Shown here one piece after another: positions 29,240 to 40,751 of a stretch of DNA of 64,000 nt (within the stretch, counting starts at the first letter, position 1; every line of letters begins with the position of its first letter). This DNA comes from Burkholderia sp. BCC0322 (GTDB lineage Bacteria > Pseudomonadota > Gammaproteobacteria > Burkholderiales > Burkholderiaceae), in assembly GCF_902833045.1 (NCBI RefSeq), contig NZ_CADFDU010000022.1, forward strand, positions 1-64,000, given 5' to 3'. Both the position numbers and the translations under genes were made by a program. Below the pieces are notes generated by a model. The model was not told the origin of the DNA. It ran no database searches and saw only the letters and a program-made list of their open reading frames with translations.

Positions 29240-29806
29240 TCAATCCGCCGCCTCTCCGCCCGCCCGCGCAATCGGCGCCGACACGATCGGCCGATGCGAC
29301 ACGCCTTCGTGCGACAACCGGCTTTCAAACAGCGTAAGCGCATCGAACCGCAGCGCGACCGTCCGCTTCACCGCACCGCCGTGCGCCGGCTGTCCGACCG
29401 CATCGTGCGGCAGCCGTGCGAGTGTCACGTGCGGGCGGAACGGCCGCCGGTCAGCCGGCACGCCGAGCTCGCGCAGCTTCGCCGACAGCGCGACATTCAA
29501 CGCGGCACACGCGGGCTCGGCGGCCAGTTCCGCGACGATCAGCCGCGCGCGCGGCAGGCTCGGCCACCACGCGATCCGTTCGACCGGCATCAACGGCAGC
29601 GCATGCGCGGCCGCGAGCGCCGGCAGGCATGCGGCCAGCTCGTCGCAGCGCACCCGCTCGATCGCGCCAACGAACGCGAGCGTCACATGCAGTTGCGCGG
29701 GCAGCGAACGCCGTGCGCCCCGGGTAACCGGCAACGCGTGCAGCGCGTCGCGCGATGCCGCATCGGGCATCAGCGCGACGAACACGCGCAGCCGGTCGCC
29801 GTTCAT
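29240..29806 (-). CDS. thpR: RNA 2',3'-cyclic phosphodiesterase ThpR (LigT)
   Basis: 188 residues of the 2H phosphoesterase superfamily. The two HxTx motifs are HVTLAFVG (His40) and HVTLARL (His126). Family members hydrolyse 2',3'-cyclic phosphates to 2'-phosphates or ligate tRNA half-molecules in vitro. The start overlaps the AGCS stop as ATGA, an odd partner for an RNA enzyme. Confidence 0.9.
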   Translation of the reverse strand: MNGDRLRVFVALMPDAASRDALHALPVTRGARRSLPAQLHVTLAFVGAIERVRCDELAACLPALAAAHALPLMPVERIAWWPSLPRARLIVAELAAEPACAALNVALSAKLRELGVPADRRPFRPHVTLARLPHDAVGQPAHGGAVKRTVALRFDALTLFESRLSHEGVSHRPIVSAPIARAGGEAAD

Positions 29807-31293
29807 GACTCGCGCACCACCGCGCGAGGCACGCTCTCGGCATCGGCCGCGGCCGGACGCTGCGGCAGCGGACCATGCTCGCCCCACACGTCGGCCGGCA
29901 GCACGTTCGCGAGTTCCGGAATCGTGTTGCGCGTGAACACCGGATCGGCAACGCCTGCCGCGCGCTGACGGCGATAGTCGCGCCATGCCGCGTGCGCGTA
30001 CTTGCCGAGCGCGAGGATCGCGATCAGGTTGATGATCGCCATCAGCCCCATGCTCGTATCGGCCATCGCCCACACGAGCGGCAATTGCCCGACGCTGCCG
30101 AACATCACCATCGCGAGCACCGCGACGCGGAACAGCAGCAGCACGCCGCGCCGCTTCGTGATGAACTCGACGTTGCCTTCCGCATACGCGTAGTTGCCGA
30201 TCACCGACGAGTACGCGAAGAAGAAGATCGCGAAGGCCATGTAGATGCCGCCCCAGTCGCCGACGTGGCTCGCGATCGAGCGCTGGGTGAGCGCCGCGCC
30301 TTCCATGCCGGTGCCCAGTTCGTACTGGCCCGACAGCAGGATCACGAAGGCGGTGGCGCTGCAGATCACGATCGTGTCGACGAACACGCCGAGCATCTGG
30401 ATCAGCCCCTGCACGACCGGATGCCGCGTGCTGGCGGTTGCCGCCGCATTCGGCGCGCTGCCCATGCCGGCCTCGTTCGAGAACAGCCCGCGCTTCACGC
30501 CCATCGCGACTGCCTGGCTGACCGCATAGCCCGTCAGGCCACCCGCCGCCTGCTCGAGACCAAACGCGCTCTTCACGATCAACGCGATCACGCCCGGCAC
30601 CATCGCGATGTGCGTCGCGACCGCGTAGACCGCGAGCGCGAGATAGCCGATCGCCATCAGCGGCACGATCACCTGCGCAACTGCCGCGATCCGGCGAATC
30701 CCTCCGAAGATGATCGGCGCGGTCAGCAGCACGAGCCCGAGACCTACCGTCGCGCGGCTCCAGCCGAACGACGTGTCGAACGCATCGGCGATCGCGTTGG
30801 CCTGCACCGCGTTGAACACGAAGCCGAACGCGAGGATCAGCGACAGCGAGAACAGCACGCCGAAGCCGCGCGAGCGCAGGCCCGTCTGGATGTAGTACGC
30901 GGGGCCGCCGCGATAGCTGCCGTCCTGATGCGACACCTTGAAGATCTGCGCGAGCGTCGCCTCGACGAACGCGGACGACATCCCGACGAGCGCCGTCATC
31001 CACATCCAGAAGATCGCGCCCGGGCCGCCGACGGTCAGCGCGACCGCGACGCCGGCGATGTTGCCGGTGCCGACGCGGCTCGCGAGCCCGGTCGCGAACG
31101 CCTGGAACGACGAGATGCTGCCCGGCTCGCCCTTGCTGCCGACCAGCTTGATGCTGAGCAACAGCGCCTTCAGCTGGATCATCCGGAACCGCACCGTGAA
31201 CCACGCGCCCACGCCGAGCAGCAGCGCGATCAGCACGTAGTTCCACAGCACGCCGTTGACGGCGTCGATCAGCCCTTGCACGAATGCTTCCAT
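29803..31293 (-). CDS. AGCS-family sodium:alanine/glycine symporter
   Basis: 496 residues, about 11 membrane helices. The family blocks QAFATGLASRVGTGNIAGVAVAL, GGPGAIFWMW and FSNEAGMGSAPNAAA are all present. It imports alanine or glycine with sodium. The ribosome site AAGGA precedes the ATG at 31293. It is convergent with the DadA-like gene, with thpR between them. Confidence 0.92.
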   Translation of the reverse strand: MEAFVQGLIDAVNGVLWNYVLIALLLGVGAWFTVRFRMIQLKALLLSIKLVGSKGEPGSISSFQAFATGLASRVGTGNIAGVAVALTVGGPGAIFWMWMTALVGMSSAFVEATLAQIFKVSHQDGSYRGGPAYYIQTGLRSRGFGVLFSLSLILAFGFVFNAVQANAIADAFDTSFGWSRATVGLGLVLLTAPIIFGGIRRIAAVAQVIVPLMAIGYLALAVYAVATHIAMVPGVIALIVKSAFGLEQAAGGLTGYAVSQAVAMGVKRGLFSNEAGMGSAPNAAATASTRHPVVQGLIQMLGVFVDTIVICSATAFVILLSGQYELGTGMEGAALTQRSIASHVGDWGGIYMAFAIFFFAYSSVIGNYAYAEGNVEFITKRRGVLLLFRVAVLAMVMFGSVGQLPLVWAMADTSMGLMAIINLIAILALGKYAHAAWRDYRRQRAAGVADPVFTRNTIPELANVLPADVWGEHGPLPQRPAAADAESVPRAVVRES

Positions 31294-31831
31294 CCAGAGT
31301 CCTTGTAAATAGGGTCGGTCATGTGCGGCCGCCGCGGACGCGGCCTGAAAGGCGACATGATATGACAGTTCTCAAGGATCATTACAAAATGAAAGGATTC
31401 GGTGTCATGACAAATCACGGGGCCGATCTCTCCTGATCAGATGCGTCAACACGCCCCCGTCACCTTGGGCAATCTCCCGTGACTGTTTGACACATTGCTC
31501 AGTCAACAGGACACGCAGAGAAAAGTGTTTCCGTATTTCGACTTTTCTCGGCGCTTACCCGAACGATATACATCGGTCGCCGATCGGTCGACCGACCACG
31601 CGTCCTCCGCATCCCCACGTCCCGCGCCGGCGCCCGGCTAATTTCGAGACAAGGGAGCGCGGTCGCATGCTCTCGGGAATCTGTTTTGACTTCGCTTCCT
31701 AGAAGCGTTCCGGATGATTCCCCATGAATACGTGCCGAACGAACTCCTTGCAGATAGCATAAAAAAACATAACCGTCTCATTCTCAGGCATGCGAATCAA
31801 TCATCGAAATCACCACTGCACGGGATATGAA
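31294..31831. other. Lower-GC gene-free region upstream of the colicin M-like gene
   Basis: 538 bases without a gene I can support. The first ~80 bases are the AGCS leader. Further on are an imperfect inverted repeat CTGTTTGAC (31483-31491) / GTCAACAG (31502-31509), a perfect 9-base inverted repeat GAGAAAAGT (31518-31526) / ACTTTTCTC (31541-31549), and a run of seven A before the next gene. Base composition falls here and stays low to about 33430, consistent with acquired DNA. Confidence 0.55.
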
Positions 31832-32050
31832 ATGACGAAGCATAACCATTTGAAACAGACAAGCCACGCCTCTGAAGAAAAACAACAGCCTTTGATGCGA
31901 CGACGTCTTCTGGTCGCGTCAACCATGCTTCCGTTTGGCACGTTGCTGAAGCACGCGACGGCCATGGCTCAGAACAACGTCCTCCCACCCATCGAGATCA
32001 CGGCACCGAGGTGCCCGACTTTAATTTTGGTGATTTCGGCATCAAGGTAA
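31832..32050 (+). pseudogene. Signal-peptide fragment of a frameshifted colicin M-like protein
   Basis: From the ATG at 31832 (MTKHNHLKQ) the frame encodes a polar N-region, then LMRRRLLVASTMLPF...ATAMAQ, a twin-arginine-like or Sec signal ending in AMAQ, and then NNVLPPIEITAPR. After that it reads 12 unrelated codons to a TAA at 32050. The true continuation, PDFNFGDFGIKV, is in the -1 frame. One missing G in an AGGG run at about 32009-32012 would restore a single protein reading ...TAPRVPDFNF.... A start at 31790 is also possible. Confidence 0.65.
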
Positions 32051-32964
32051 ACGAAATTCCTGGCGCCAACCCCGGCACCGGAATGCCGGCACCTTCAATT
32101 TGCTTCAATCAGTATTGCACATCGAATTTCATGTTGCTGTTTGCAAACACGGGCAACATGATCCGTGCCACCGAGATGTTTCTCAAACATCTCCAAGTCT
32201 TCGGGGGCAACGACACAAAATTCTGGCGTAATCAATTAATACGGGTGGGAGGCTTCACTCCTTGGTTGGCCATCGGTGGCTACAAACATTTTCCCGGTGC
32301 CAATCAGTACGGATTCAATTTCGAACCAGGAACATATGCAAACATCACTGCGCTATTTGGTAGCTATATCGGACAATCAAGCAGCATCCCGCCAACAAGC
32401 ACATTCGCGTCGTACGGCAATCCGCTGATGTTCGTCGAAGCACTCAATCATTGGATACACGGAGACGGAACTCAACGAACCGTTCATATTGAATCACTCA
32501 ACTTGAAGATGAGCATCAGCAATTTCTCGGAAATATCGAGAGCCATTGAAAATCCCGGATACGGCCCCGGCATCTACTCGTTCGACACCGGTTTCAGCAC
32601 CAACATCTTCAATCACGGGAGAAAGGATCTCTGGAGCGCCGCAGTCTTTGGGCGAGTATCCGGCAGGGTACGTGGCACGCTTGAAATGCTGGAGGACGAT
32701 ACATATCGATTCGTCGGTTACTACTCACTCAATCCCGACAAGTTCGATGCAGATCCTTCAAACCGACCGTTTCTGCAGGAGGCTGCGACGACGTTCCTGT
32801 CCAAGCTCGGCGCCACCTTGGGACATAAGGACTATCAAATCAACTTTTTCGGTGAAAAAAGTCTCACGTTCTCTGGCCAACGACCTGTCAAGAATGCCGG
32901 TACACGCCCCCCGCAGGCGGTCCATAGGCCGTCGTTCGGTGGACTGATGCGACCGACTCGCTAG
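32011..32964 (+). CDS. Colicin M-like lipid II-degrading bacteriocin domain (frameshifted gene)
   Basis: 317 codons from the GTG at 32011; more likely the main part of the gene starting at 31832. Residues ~144-292 align by eye with colicin M: ALNHWIHGDGTQRTVHI against ALAHYLWGNGAERSVNI, GRVSGRVRGTLEM against GNITLKTEGTLTI, and GATLGHKDYQINFFGEKSL against GAMFSGKEYQILLPGEIHI. Colicin M cleaves undecaprenyl-PP-sugar bonds in the periplasm. In the catalytic loop the colicin M pattern D-K-Y-D...H-R becomes Asp243-Lys-Phe245-Asp246...Asn251-Arg252, one residue shorter. The N-terminal half shows no homology I can name. Codon use and GC differ from the core genes. The next gene looks like its immunity protein. 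Confidence 0.78.
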   Translation: MPDFNFGDFGIKVNEIPGANPGTGMPAPSICFNQYCTSNFMLLFANTGNMIRATEMFLKHLQVFGGNDTKFWRNQLIRVGGFTPWLAIGGYKHFPGANQYGFNFEPGTYANITALFGSYIGQSSSIPPTSTFASYGNPLMFVEALNHWIHGDGTQRTVHIESLNLKMSISNFSEISRAIENPGYGPGIYSFDTGFSTNIFNHGRKDLWSAAVFGRVSGRVRGTLEMLEDDTYRFVGYYSLNPDKFDADPSNRPFLQEAATTFLSKLGATLGHKDYQINFFGEKSLTFSGQRPVKNAGTRPPQAVHRPSFGGLMRPTR

Positions 32965-33040
32965 CAGGCCCCGGGCGGCTCCGGAAATTCGACTGCCCGG
33001 GTCAACCCCGCATTTTATTCATACCCACAGTGAGCGCCTC

Positions 33041-33424
33041 ATGATTTCCAGAGTCATACGCGGAATCCTCCGGCTAGTTCTCTGGCTAGTTATCGCAGCG
33101 ATTGGCACCTATGCGCTACTGTTCGTCGTCGTTGCGACTTCCCGATATGAGCGGACCGAAGGCACTTGCCCTGACATGTCTCTCGATACGCTACGAAACA
33201 AGGTCCTGCTACGTCTCGAGGAACAAGGAATACCGATGGACAGCATCCGGTTCGACGGTGCGCCGCAGTATCACGCATGGAAACTGGGCATGTGGGAATT
33301 CCCGCTGCTCATTGAGGAAACTAGATACATCGCGATGATCGACTGCAACGAACAGCTTTCAAGCTATTGGCAAGTCAAAGATCAGCCAGTCGACAAAACC
33401 GGACAAGCTCACGATCGCCGATAA
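33041..33424 (+). CDS. Putative Cmi-like immunity protein, membrane-anchored
   Basis: 127 residues: one N-terminal membrane helix (about 9-33) followed by a ~90-residue domain predicted to be periplasmic, with just two cysteines, Cys43 and Cys102. The colicin M immunity protein Cmi has the same plan: about 117 residues, an N-terminal anchor, and a periplasmic domain closed by one disulfide near its two ends. The gene lies 76 bases after the colicin M-like gene on the same strand. Sequence identity to Cmi is low, so the call rests on architecture and position. It overlaps nothing and ends just before the gltD terminator. Confidence 0.55.
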   Translation: MISRVIRGILRLVLWLVIAAIGTYALLFVVVATSRYERTEGTCPDMSLDTLRNKVLLRLEEQGIPMDSIRFDGAPQYHAWKLGMWEFPLLIEETRYIAMIDCNEQLSSYWQVKDQPVDKTGQAHDRR

Positions 33425-33428
33425 CTTC

Positions 33429-33461
33429 AAAAAAAAACCGGGCGCCCTTTCGGACGCCCGG
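33429..33461 (-). terminator. Terminator of gltBD
   Basis: Stem CCGGGCG/CGCCCGG (33438-33444 with 33455-33461) followed on the minus strand by nine U. It ends the gltB-gltD transcript and also marks the edge of the accessory island. Confidence 0.85.
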
Positions 33462-33492
33462 TTCTCATCGAAACCCGCTCGCGCTATTCAGC

Positions 33493-34959
33493 TCAGCGCG
33501 GCAGTTCCGAATGCCCCATCAGGTACGCATCGACCGAGCGCGCGCACTGGCGGCCTTCGCGGATCGCCCACACCACGAGCGACTGGCCGCGGCGCATGTC
33601 GCCCGCCGCGAACACCTTGTCGACCGACGTGTAGTACGAACGATCGCCTTCGGTCGCCGCACGCGCATTGCCGCGCGCATCCTTCGCGACACCGAATGCC
33701 TCAAGCACGGGTGCCGCCGGCTGCGTGAAGCCCATCGCGAGCAGGACGAGGTCGGCCTTCATTTCGAATTCGGAGCCCGGCACCTCCTGCATCTTGCCGT
33801 CCTTCCACTCGACGCGCACCGCGATCAGCTTCTCGACCTTGCCGTTCTTGCCTTCGAGACGCTTCGTCGCGACTGCCCAGTCGCGCTCGCAACCTTCCTC
33901 GTGCGACGACGACGTGCGCAGCTTGATCGGCCAGTACGGCCACACGAGCGGCTTGTTTTCCTCTTCCGGCGGCTGCGGCAACAGCTCGAACTGCGTGACC
34001 TGCTTCGCGCCGTGACGGTTCGACGTGCCGACGCAGTCCGAACCCGTATCGCCGCCGCCGATCACGATCACGTGCTTGCCCTTCGCGAGCAACTGGTCGA
34101 CGAGCTTGTCGCCCGCGTTCACGCGGTTCTGCTGCGGCAGGAAGTCCATCGCGAAATGGACGCCCGCGAGCTCGCGGCCCGGCACCGGCAGGTCGCGCGG
34201 CGTTTCCGAACCGCCGGCGATCACGACCGCATCGAATTCTTCCTTCAGCGTGTCCGGCGAGATGGTTTCCTTCGCGAGACTGCCGATCGACTCCGGCAGC
34301 GGATCCTTGCCGATGAACACGCTGGTGCGGAACGTCACGCCTTCCGCTTCCATCTGGCGCATGCGGCGGTCGATCAGCCACTTCTCGAGCTTGAAGTCGG
34401 GAATGCCGTAGCGCAGCAGGCCGCCGACACGATCGTTCTTCTCGAACACCGTCACGTCGTGGCCCGCACGCGCGAGCTGCTGCGCCGCGGCGAGGCCCGC
34501 GGGGCCGGAGCCGACGACGGCAACCTTCTTGCCCGTCTTGTGTGCGGCCGGCTCAGGCTTCACCCAGCCTTCCGCCCATGCCTTGTCGATGATCGCGTGC
34601 TCGATCGACTTGATGCCGACCGGGTCGTCGTTGATCCCGAGCGTGCACGCCGCTTCGCACGGCGCCGGGCAGATGCGGCCCGTGAATTCCGGGAAGTTGT
34701 TGGTCGAGTGCAGGACTTCGATCGCCTGCTGCCAGTCCTGGCGGTAAACGAGATCGTTGAAGTCCGGAATGATGTTGTTGACCGGGCAGCCGTTGTTGCA
34801 GAACGGGATGCCGCAATCCATGCAGCGCGCGCCCTGGACCTTCGCGTCCGCGTCGGTCAGTGCCGCGACGAATTCCTTGTAGTGCTTCACGCGCGTGAGC
34901 GGTACTTCGTACGCCTCGTGGCGGCGTTCGAACTCCAGAAAACCGGTTGCCTTGCCCAT
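33493..34959 (-). CDS. gltD: Glutamate synthase small subunit GltD
   Basis: 488 residues. N-terminal cysteine clusters for [4Fe-4S] centres ([19 protein letters not shown] and [16 protein letters not shown]), FAD loop [21 protein letters not shown] and NADPH loop [17 protein letters not shown]. It passes electrons from NADPH to GltB. The start [12 protein letters not shown] at 34959 is used because the upstream frame encodes non-homologous sequence. It follows gltB by 85 bases. Confidence 0.96.
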
Positions 34960-35044
34960 AAGGTGCTCTTCTGTTCGGTATGTCGGGTGGGGGAGCCGCG
35001 CGCGGCAATCATGCGCGCGCGGCATTCGCTATGTCGTTCGTCGC

Positions 35045-39748
<4,704 letters not shown>

Positions 39749-39878
39749 GGGGACACCGTCGTAAAGGGGGCCTGGAGGCCGTTGAACCATTTTCTTGTTG
39801 CCGTCGATCCCGCTCCCGACGGGAGACGGCGCGGCCGACGGTGGATGGGCATGCTTCGCCCGGGCCACCGGAATTCGG

Positions 39879-39908
39879 AATATACGCGACGAATCAAAGG
39901 AATAGCAA
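39879..39908 (-). promoter_or_regulatory. Candidate gltB promoter
   Basis: TTGCTA and TATATT with an 18-base spacer on the minus strand, about 130 bases before gltB, in an AT-rich stretch that stands out from its surroundings. Confidence 0.45.
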
Positions 39909-39920
39909 CAAAAACCGCTT

Positions 39921-39971
39921 GATCGAACCCCAATTAAATGGATGCTTCGATCTGGTGCCGTTTTATTGGGG
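39921..39971. repeat. Nested inverted repeats between gltB and the transposase-like gene
   Basis: GATCGAA (39921-39927) pairs with TTCGATC (39946-39952), and CCCCAAT (39928-39934) pairs with ATTGGGG (39965-39971). The two pairs interlock rather than nest cleanly. They may be regulator sites for gltB or remnants of REP-like sequence linked to the adjacent RayT-type gene. Confidence 0.5.
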
Positions 39972-39988
39972 TCGTATCGTTTTGGTGC

Positions 39989-40016
39989 AAAAAAGAAGCG
40001 GCGCCCGCAGCGCCGC
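39989..40016 (-). terminator. Terminator after the transposase-like gene
   Basis: GCGGCGC/GCGCCGC stem (39998-40004 with 40010-40016) followed on the minus strand by TTCTTTTTT. It separates this gene from gltB. Confidence 0.75.
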
Positions 40017-40037
40017 CTCTCGGCTGCCGCTCCCGCG

Positions 40038-40751
40038 TTACTGCTGGATCGGCGGCGTGTTTTCACGCACCTTTCTGGGGCGTCCGCGCGGCAGCGGCGA
40101 TACGCGCCGGTTCGCGGTGCGCGCCGCCCACTCGCGGTAATTCTCGCCGCCGAGTACCCAGCCCTTGAGCGTCGCCTGCTGCAACTGGTCGGCCTGCCGC
40201 TCGTCGAGCGGCTGCTCGCACAGCTCCTTGTACGCACGCTGGCGGTCGAACGGCGTGTTGCCGAGCGCCCAGTAGAGCGGATGGTCGGTGATCAGGCTGT
40301 CGACGGTGAGCCCGACGTGATGCCGGTAGCTCGACCAGCGATAGGCCTCGGGCGTCGCGACGAGCTGCGAGCGCACCGGGCTCATCTCGACCACGCGACT
40401 CGCGAGCAGGAAATAGCGCTCGCCTTCGATCACGGTCGCGCGATAGCGGCCTTCCCACAGGGTGCCGCGCCGCGAATAGCGCCGGTTGAAATGCGCAACG
40501 TAGCGGCGACCGACGGCCTGCATCGCCTTCGGCAGGCTCGCCTCGTCGCTCGGGGTCACGAGAAGTTGCACCTGGCGCGGCAGCAGCACATAGGCATGCA
40601 CCGACAGGTGGTGATCGCGCGCGGCGGCCTTCAGGCAGTCGATGAAGAGTTCGTAGTCCTGGTCGTCGACGAACGCGGGTTGCTGATCCAGGCCGCGCAG
40701 TATCACGTGCTGCGGCTGGTCGGGAACGTAGAGTCGTGCTAACCGTGCCAT
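40038..40751 (-). CDS. REP-associated tyrosine transposase-like protein, active site lost
   Basis: 237 residues, Y1/IS200-like fold of the RayT group. The backbone is well kept: [27 protein letters not shown] and [10 protein letters not shown]. The metal-binding HUH motif (normally NHVHLL) reads RQVQLL (Gln60-Val-Gln62), and the catalytic Tyr of the RYIELNPVR helix is Val120 (RVVEMSPVR). The frame is otherwise intact, with a C-terminal extension ending in a basic RGRPRKV segment that resembles an AT-hook. This points to a domesticated DNA/RNA-binding protein rather than a decaying transposase. Confidence 0.88.

What the first reader, a model, noticed from the sequence alone, without database searches (positions are those of the whole stretch)
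31832..33424. Colicin M-type lipid II hydrolase and Cmi-like immunity gene in an accessory island
Seen: the frame 32011-32964 shares ordered blocks with colicin M (ALNHW..HGDGTQRTVHI, RGTLEM, GHKDYQINFFGEK), and a 127-residue membrane-anchored protein follows on the same strand. Known: colicin M-type bacteriocins (colicin M, PaeM, Burkholderia relatives) cleave lipid II and come with immunity genes. Inference: this is a toxin/immunity module inserted between the AGCS gene and gltBD. Unlike known colicins it has an export signal, so it could be a self-exported or contact-delivered effector.
Basis: partly seen in the sequence, partly recalled or inferred. Interest (0 to 1): 0.9.

Follow-up and report, generated by a model that had tools for sequence, protein, structure and literature searches.

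The report
Broken colicin M-like toxin with immunity
A Burkholderia-type chromosome carries a small gene cassette for a published kind of bacteria-killing protein (burkhocin M) and its immunity protein; here the toxin gene is split between two reading frames while the immunity gene is whole, so the find is mostly ordinary.

Summary
Frame 32011-32964 matches Colicin_M (PF14859, E 4e-15); the next gene (33041-33424) is its membrane-anchored immunity partner. The kind is published: burkhocin M with BmiA/BmiB immunity (Ghequire and De Mot 2015, PMC4661593), including a clade at this same site, with export signal, missing active-site His and C-terminal tail. Added here: (1) the window toxin is split: signal and TonB-box-like motif in one frame, body in another; close relatives are intact; 4 of 19 burM loci are split. 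(2) The gltD-symporter gap is a cassette site: of 53 genomes with both flanks together, 27 look empty, 9 hold toxin plus immunity, 12 immunity only, 5 neither. (3) The motif resembles that of the genus's own TonB-dependent receptors (13 of 30; shuffle mean 0.01). (4) 0 of 19 loci have the catalytic His. (5) BmiB is Cmi-like in topology only; no YebF match, no significant fold match. Contact delivery is unsupported; receptor/TonB import fits better. The window copy is probably a recent toxin-lost, immunity-kept allele, or an assembly error.

The parts
31410..33430 (.). Low-GC cassette between AGCS and gltD; homology to empty sites stops near these coordinates (approximate)
   Evidence: Alignment of the window flanks with three empty sites; GC profile
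31832..32050 (+). 5' piece of the burkhocin M gene: start as in relatives (MTKHN...), twin-arginine type signal, TonB-box-like motif; then out of frame
   Evidence: ORF list; relatives L013, L018, L039
31895..31969 (+). Twin-arginine type signal peptide (MRRRLLVASTMLPFGTLLKHATAMA, then Q)
   Evidence: Read from sequence, no predictor run here; RR in 19 of 19 burM N-termini; Tat or Sec predicted for 14 of 16 relatives in PMC4661593
31982..32002 (+). TonB-box-like motif LPPIEIT
   Evidence: 15 of 19 burM N-termini fit LPx[IV]x[VI][TNS]; 13 of 30 TonB-dependent receptors of two relatives do
32011..32964 (+). Body of the burkhocin M gene in the second frame (317 codons)
32416..32883 (+). Colicin_M domain (residues 136-291 of the body piece)
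   Evidence: PF14859 E 4e-15
32737..32766 (+). Active-site stretch DKFDADPSNR: equivalents of colicin M D226, D229 and R236 present, F for Y228, no His235
   Evidence: Alignments; residue roles from PMC4661593
32884..32961 (+). C-terminal extension typical of burkhocins (ends ...AVHRPSFGGLMRPTR)
   Evidence: Alignment A1; extension described in PMC4661593
33041..33424 (+). bmiB-type immunity gene, 127 aa, intact; N-terminal hydrophobic helix; Cys43 and Cys102 invariant in 10 aligned members
33430..33463 (-). Terminator-like stem-loop after gltD, shared with empty sites; right edge of the cassette
   Evidence: Read from sequence and from the alignment with empty sites; the consensus scan did not list it
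29803..31293 (-). Left neighbour: AGCS sodium:alanine symporter gene
   Evidence: PF01235 E 8e-156
33493..35025 (-). Right neighbour: gltD (glutamate synthase small subunit)
   Evidence: Fer4_20 and Pyr_redox_2 matches; next to the long ORF 35045-40237 read as gltB (recalled identity)

Best explanation
A burkhocin M (BurM2-type, ColM-beta clade) toxin gene with its bmiB immunity gene, in a swappable cassette between the AGCS symporter gene and gltD. In intact relatives the toxin would leave the cytoplasm by its twin-arginine (or Sec) signal, be released, bind an outer-membrane TonB-dependent receptor of a close relative, be pulled in through its own TonB box, and cleave lipid II in the periplasm with its C-terminal ColM domain; BmiB, anchored in the inner membrane and facing the periplasm, protects the producer. 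Shown in print for relatives: killing of Burkholderia by BurM1 and BurM2, need for the conserved Asp (tested in BurM2), cognate immunity by BmiA or BmiB. Inferred: lipid II cleavage, TonB use, receptor, release route. In the window the signal plus TonB box and the body are in different frames, so this copy most likely makes no working toxin while immunity is kept.
For: PF14859 E 4e-15. ColM-family PDB entries by sequence; from a low-confidence model (mean pLDDT 52.7) they are also the 14 of 14 fold matches with E <= 0.001, though with TM-scores of only 0.31-0.41. Body 97, 96, 87, 86 and 85% identical to intact proteins L018, L013, L011, L008, L009. Same site and partner in relatives. Published family with the same location, immunity type, signal, missing His and tail. 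TonB-box-like motif shared with the genus's receptors, 13 of 30, shuffle mean 0.01. bmiB intact and 98 and 97% identical to those of two intact-toxin loci. Codon changes on the window branch of the body: 9 nonsynonymous and 14 synonymous, against 2 and 17 private to two intact sister copies together.
Against: The window's own assembly is not held, so an error at the frame change cannot be excluded. The body still looks selected (9 of 23 changes nonsynonymous; p 1.1e-4 against neutrality) and the excess over its sisters is weak (Fisher p 0.075). Per the 2021 review, no burkhocin has been tested for lipid II cleavage, and the catalytic His is missing.
Confidence: 0.82

Rival explanations
1. The frame change is an assembly or sequencing error, and the strain carries an ordinary working burkhocin M locus.
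For: Body under purifying selection (p 1.1e-4); intact sister copies at 96-97% identity; bmiB intact; own assembly not held for a check.
Against: 3 of the 18 other burM loci are also split, so loss of this gene is plausible biology, although errors cannot be excluded there either; the window branch has proportionally more amino-acid changes than its sisters, weakly (p 0.075).
Confidence: 0.4
2. A contact-delivered or self-exported effector rather than a diffusible bacteriocin.
For: Export signal in the 5' piece and RR-type N-termini in relatives; the route out of the periplasm is unknown.
Against: TonB-box-like motif after the signal: 15 of 19 N-termini on the strict pattern, 19 of 19 on a relaxed one; no other family on the pieces searched apart from one PHROG of unknown function over the ColM part; purified relatives kill when spotted on lawns (PMC4661593).
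Confidence: 0.05
3. The body is made alone from an internal start (GTG 32011) and acts as a cytoplasmic colicin released by lysis, as colicin M is.
For: GTG at 32011 opens a 317-codon frame.
Against: That product lacks the TonB-box-like motif conserved in the family; no clear ribosome-binding site before 32011 (read by eye); intact relatives have one continuous frame.
Confidence: 0.05
4. Programmed frameshifting joins the two frames.
For: The two ORFs overlap by about 40 bases.
Against: No slippery heptamer seen by eye in the overlap; intact relatives use a single frame.
Confidence: 0.02

Closest known systems
Burkhocin M2 (BurM2) with BmiB, B. ambifaria AMMD, and its clade between glutamate synthase and amino acid symporter genes (Ghequire and De Mot 2015, PMC4661593)
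   Same: Location, gene order and strand, low GC, N-terminal export signal, short conserved motif after it, ColM domain with D and R kept and His absent, C-terminal tail, 124-132 aa single-helix immunity protein with two conserved cysteines
   Different: Window toxin gene is split between two frames; AMMD's signal was predicted Sec, the window 5' piece looks twin-arginine
Colicin M / PaeM / pectocin M / syringacin M (PF14859)
   Same: Catalytic domain by sequence
   Different: Export signal, C-terminal tail, no catalytic His, no sequence match in the N-terminal half, different immunity protein
Cmi / YebF (PF13995)
   Same: Topology: one N-terminal helix, periplasmic domain, two cysteines (argument of PMC4661593)
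   Different: No sequence match, no significant fold match
Orphan pmiA 'cheater' loci of Pseudomonas (PMC5277000, passages seen)
   Same: Toxin gene frameshifted or truncated beside a kept immunity gene
   Different: Other immunity type (PmiA) and other genus

Membership tests
Colicin M catalytic family (PF14859) | Profile match over the curated cut-off | tested here: met
   56.1 bits, cut-off 27
Colicin M catalytic family (PF14859) | Full DxYDx5HR motif | tested here: not met
   DKFDADPSNR; His in 0 of 19 loci, D226 and R236 equivalents in 19 of 19; the missing His is already reported in PMC4661593
Colicin M catalytic family (PF14859) | Lipid II cleavage | not testable with these tools
   Biochemical; untested for any burkhocin per a passage of PMC8469651
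Burkhocin M (BurM) | N-terminal Tat/Sec signal followed by a short conserved motif | tested here: met
   Present in the 5' piece (read from sequence and by motif; no signal predictor run), but in another frame than the body
Burkhocin M (BurM) | C-terminal extension of 26-36 aa beyond the ColM domain | tested here: met
   26 residues after the domain match; tail aligned
Burkhocin M (BurM) | Adjacent bmiA or bmiB gene | tested here: met
   127-aa BmiB homologue with two invariant cysteines
Burkhocin M (BurM) | One open reading frame for signal and body | tested here: not met
   Two frames in the window; one frame in 15 of the 18 other loci
Burkhocin M (BurM) | Antibacterial activity | not testable with these tools
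   Bench test; shown in print for BurM1 and BurM2
Cmi/YebF immunity family (PF13995) | YebF sequence signature | tested here: not met
   No Pfam match for the window BmiB; none to YebF for 10 of 10 aligned members
Cmi/YebF immunity family (PF13995) | YebF fold | tested here: inconclusive
   Model pLDDT 75.3; 0 fold matches with E <= 0.001, and no row named colicin M immunity protein or YebF among the 50 shown of 430
TonB-box-bearing colicins | N-terminal motif resembling the TonB box of receptors | tested here: met
   LPx[IV]x[VI][TNS] in 15 of 19 burM N-termini and 13 of 30 receptors, shuffle mean 0.01
TonB-box-bearing colicins | TonB-dependent entry | not testable with these tools
   Needs receptor and TonB mutants

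The most novel reading that the evidence does not exclude
BmiB is not a Cmi-type protein but a separate immunity fold: a membrane-anchored periplasmic domain with two conserved cysteines, one helix packed on five strands, of the cystatin/PepSY-like kind, that would block the ColM domain as a cystatin blocks its target; and the gltD-symporter gap is a site where such immunity genes outlast their toxins, the window being one such case caught soon after toxin loss.
Probability: 0.3. Interest if true: 0.4.

Novelty: already known. Interest (0 to 1): 0.2.

Why it matters
It shows that a reading which looked striking (a self-exported colicin M) is a published bacteriocin type, corrects the 'Cmi-like' and 'contact-delivered' labels, and adds a count of how often, at one chromosomal site, species hold the toxin pair, the immunity gene alone or nothing. 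It also points to a receptor-type TonB box as the likely entry tag and flags a disagreement in print about the active-site histidine.

Tried and rejected
Searching the window's own assembly: not held. NCBIfam and PADLOC gave no match for the body or BmiB; PHROGs gave one family of unknown function, E 5.9e-12, for the body and none for BmiB. The 5' piece alone gave only weak chance hits in Pfam and NCBIfam. The BmiB profile against PDB sequences found one chance hit, E 0.17. Cmi/YebF relatives for a profile-profile comparison: 0 of 369 genomes of the class, with E. coli positive among the controls, so that comparison was not made. Promoter and terminator scan near chance: 3 promoter-like sites against 1.8 expected, 3 terminator-like against 2.8. 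Fold of the toxin body: mean pLDDT 52.7, N-terminal half not interpretable. Fold of BmiB: best row is a human Sac2 domain, E 0.076, TM 0.27, not credible; the cystatin/PepSY-like hits below it are no more significant. Toxin traces in the 12 immunity-only sites: found in 1 (L057). The idea that the window might be B. cepacia GG4, whose burkhocin had no predicted signal, was dropped because its listed length (373 aa) fits neither piece. Integrases and insertion sequences were not searched for.

Full report
What is there. The body matches Pfam Colicin_M over residues 136-291, E 4e-15, 56.1 bits with a cut-off of 27, and solved colicin M (E 1e-9), pectocins, syringacin M and, weakly, PaeM (0.0096); with a 10-sequence profile these reach 5.8e-22 for colicin M and 8.4e-12 for PaeM. 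G+C is 0.49-0.56 across the two genes and mostly 0.63-0.74 in the flanks examined. The left neighbour is an AGCS sodium:alanine symporter gene (PF01235), the right one gltD. This is far above chance.

The gene is split. The start used by relatives (MTKHN...), the twin-arginine type signal (RR at 31898; no predictor was run) and the motif LPPIEIT (31982-32002) lie in the ORF 31790-32050, while the body lies in another frame; the two overlap at 32011-32050. Intact single-frame relatives exist; the body is 97, 96, 87, 86 and 85% identical to L018, L013, L011, L008 and L009. Of 19 burM loci (18 matches in 17 of 65 genomes of the genus, plus the window) 4 are split: the window, Burkholderia sp. SRS-46 (L041), B. 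stagnalis LMG 28156 (L043) and Burkholderia sp. Nafp2/4-1b (L048). In body numbering the window split is at the very start, that of SRS-46 near residue 27, and the other two both lie around residues 214-224, in copies of different subgroups. In SRS-46 the immunity gene is split too. Assembly errors cannot be excluded for any of them.

How old is the split? Over the 316 shared codons, 29 codons differ between the window and two intact sister copies (G035, G023) that agree with each other: 23 changes fall on the window branch by three outgroups (9 nonsynonymous, 14 synonymous), 1 on the sister side, 5 could not be placed. Changes private to one sister and not to the other are 2 and 7 (G035) and 0 and 10 (G023), nonsynonymous and synonymous. 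Compared with a neutral share of 730 of 948 sites, 9 of 23 is low (p 1.1e-4); compared with the sisters (2 of 19) it is higher, but not clearly (two-sided Fisher p 0.075). So the split is recent, or an error.

The site. I paired gltD and AGCS matches in 65 genomes of the genus, one per species. In 53 of 65 both lie together; 12 could not be paired and were left out. By gap length and by the toxin and immunity searches: 27 look empty (gap 215-378 bp; judged by length and absence of matches), 9 hold toxin plus immunity (2 of the 9 with split toxin genes, one of these with a split immunity gene), 12 hold immunity only, 5 hold neither. In 11 of the 12 immunity-only sites at least one ORF aligns over 107 or more of the 127 BmiB residues; G042 has only a fragment. 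In 1 of the 12 (L057, G054) the sequence that leads into the toxin start in relatives remains beside an intact bmiB, without the toxin, which suggests deletion of the toxin. The other 9 of the 18 toxin matches lie elsewhere in their genomes. Alignment with three empty sites puts the edges of the insert near 31410, in the region before AGCS, and near 33430, at the gltD terminator. I did not search for integrases or insertion sequences; exchange by recombination in the flanks is my inference.

Import tag. Relatives carry, just after the signal, a motif that the 2015 paper proposed as a TonB-binding box unlike that of colicin M. I compared it with 30 of the 40 TonB-dependent receptor (Plug) matches in two relatives, those with fetched loci. 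The pattern LPx[IV]x[VI][TNS] occurs in the 60 residues before the plug in 13 of 30, against a mean of 0.01 (maximum 1) in 1000 shuffles; a looser pattern in 21 of 30, against 0.47 (maximum 3). The two genomes share receptors, so the 30 are not independent. The strict pattern fits 15 of 19 burM N-termini and a relaxed one 19 of 19; in 60142 residues from 215 six-frame ORFs of 100 aa or more in the window it does not occur (the 5' piece is shorter and not in that set). The patterns were written after seeing the burkhocins, so the counts are descriptive. The reading is that burkhocins wear the TonB box of their targets' own receptors. This speaks for a diffusible, receptor-imported bacteriocin and against contact delivery.

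Active site. Colicin M uses D226, Y228, D229, H235 and R236 (PMC4661593). In 19 of 19 loci the D226 and R236 equivalents are present, and in 0 of 19 does a His stand before the Arg; the residue there is Asn (with a one-residue shorter loop) or Ser. The 2015 paper reports the missing His; a passage of the 2021 review (PMC8469651) says that all burkhocins carry the DxYD(x5)HR motif. My alignment agrees with the 2015 paper.

Immunity protein. The window BmiB has no match in Pfam, NCBIfam, PADLOC or PHROGs at E up to 1. Two cysteines are invariant in 10 aligned members, down to 19% identity. The model (mean pLDDT 75.3, 10 sequences) shows an N-terminal helix 2-37, a helix 48-61 and five strands. 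No PDB fold matches with E <= 0.001. The best row (a human Sac2 domain, E 0.076, TM 0.27) is not credible; among the weak rows several are, by title or by my recall, of cystatin or PepSY type (YpeB C-terminal domain, a DUF2874 protein, monellin, a cystatin-like protein), and no row named colicin M immunity protein or YebF is among the 50 shown of 430. YebF/Cmi (PF13995) was found in 0 of 369 sampled genomes of the class, with E. coli positive among the controls. 'Cmi-like' therefore holds for topology only, as the authors of the 2015 paper also set out.

What is known. I read the whole main text of PMC4661593 (no supplement) and passages of PMC5821083, PMC8469651 and PMC5277000. [quoted passage not shown] PMC5277000 describes frameshifted or deleted toxin genes beside kept pmiA genes in Pseudomonas and calls such strains possible cheaters. 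A search for 'burkhocin' in the open-access library gave 8 papers, 7 listed; 'colicin M' with 'Burkholderia' and 'lipid II' gave 23, 22 listed. In the text I read I did not see the site count or the receptor-box comparison made here; most subscription journals are not in that library and supplements were not read, so I make no claim of priority.

Verdict. An ordinary, published kind of locus, in a probably inactive form. The added value is the count at the site, the receptor-type TonB box and the correction of the immunity label.

Noticed in passing
L059 154-1233 (G019); also L060, L065, L063, pieces in L064: Other cargo at the same gltD-AGCS site: a 359-aa protein with a PhyH (phytanoyl-CoA dioxygenase) match, E 3.5e-8 (L059 scanned); similar sequence in 5 of the 40 loci compared, L059 included.
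   Followed up: partly
L061 335-862 (G045) and L062 366-872 (G046): Other cargo at the site: a 168-175 aa protein with weak matches to ricin-type beta-trefoil lectin models, below the Pfam cut-offs; parts of these inserts are low in G+C (0.40-0.42).
   Followed up: partly
L075 (G022) 1251-1533; L088 (G020); L089 (G004): Fragments of the AGCS gene at or near the site, in G022 beside a second, full-frame copy: signs of recombination or decay of the symporter gene.
   Followed up: no
L058 (G011), L075 (G022), L056 (G048): Two divergent bmiB-like genes in tandem without a toxin gene at the site (one partial in G048).
   Followed up: partly
window 32884-32961 and C-termini of relatives: The C-terminal tail holds RPSxGG in 13 of 17 aligned burkhocins, with the GG in 17 of 17; function unknown.
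   Followed up: no
L039 and L047 (B. metallica LMG 24068): One genome carries two divergent burM genes, each followed by a BmiB-like ORF, at two loci.
   Followed up: no
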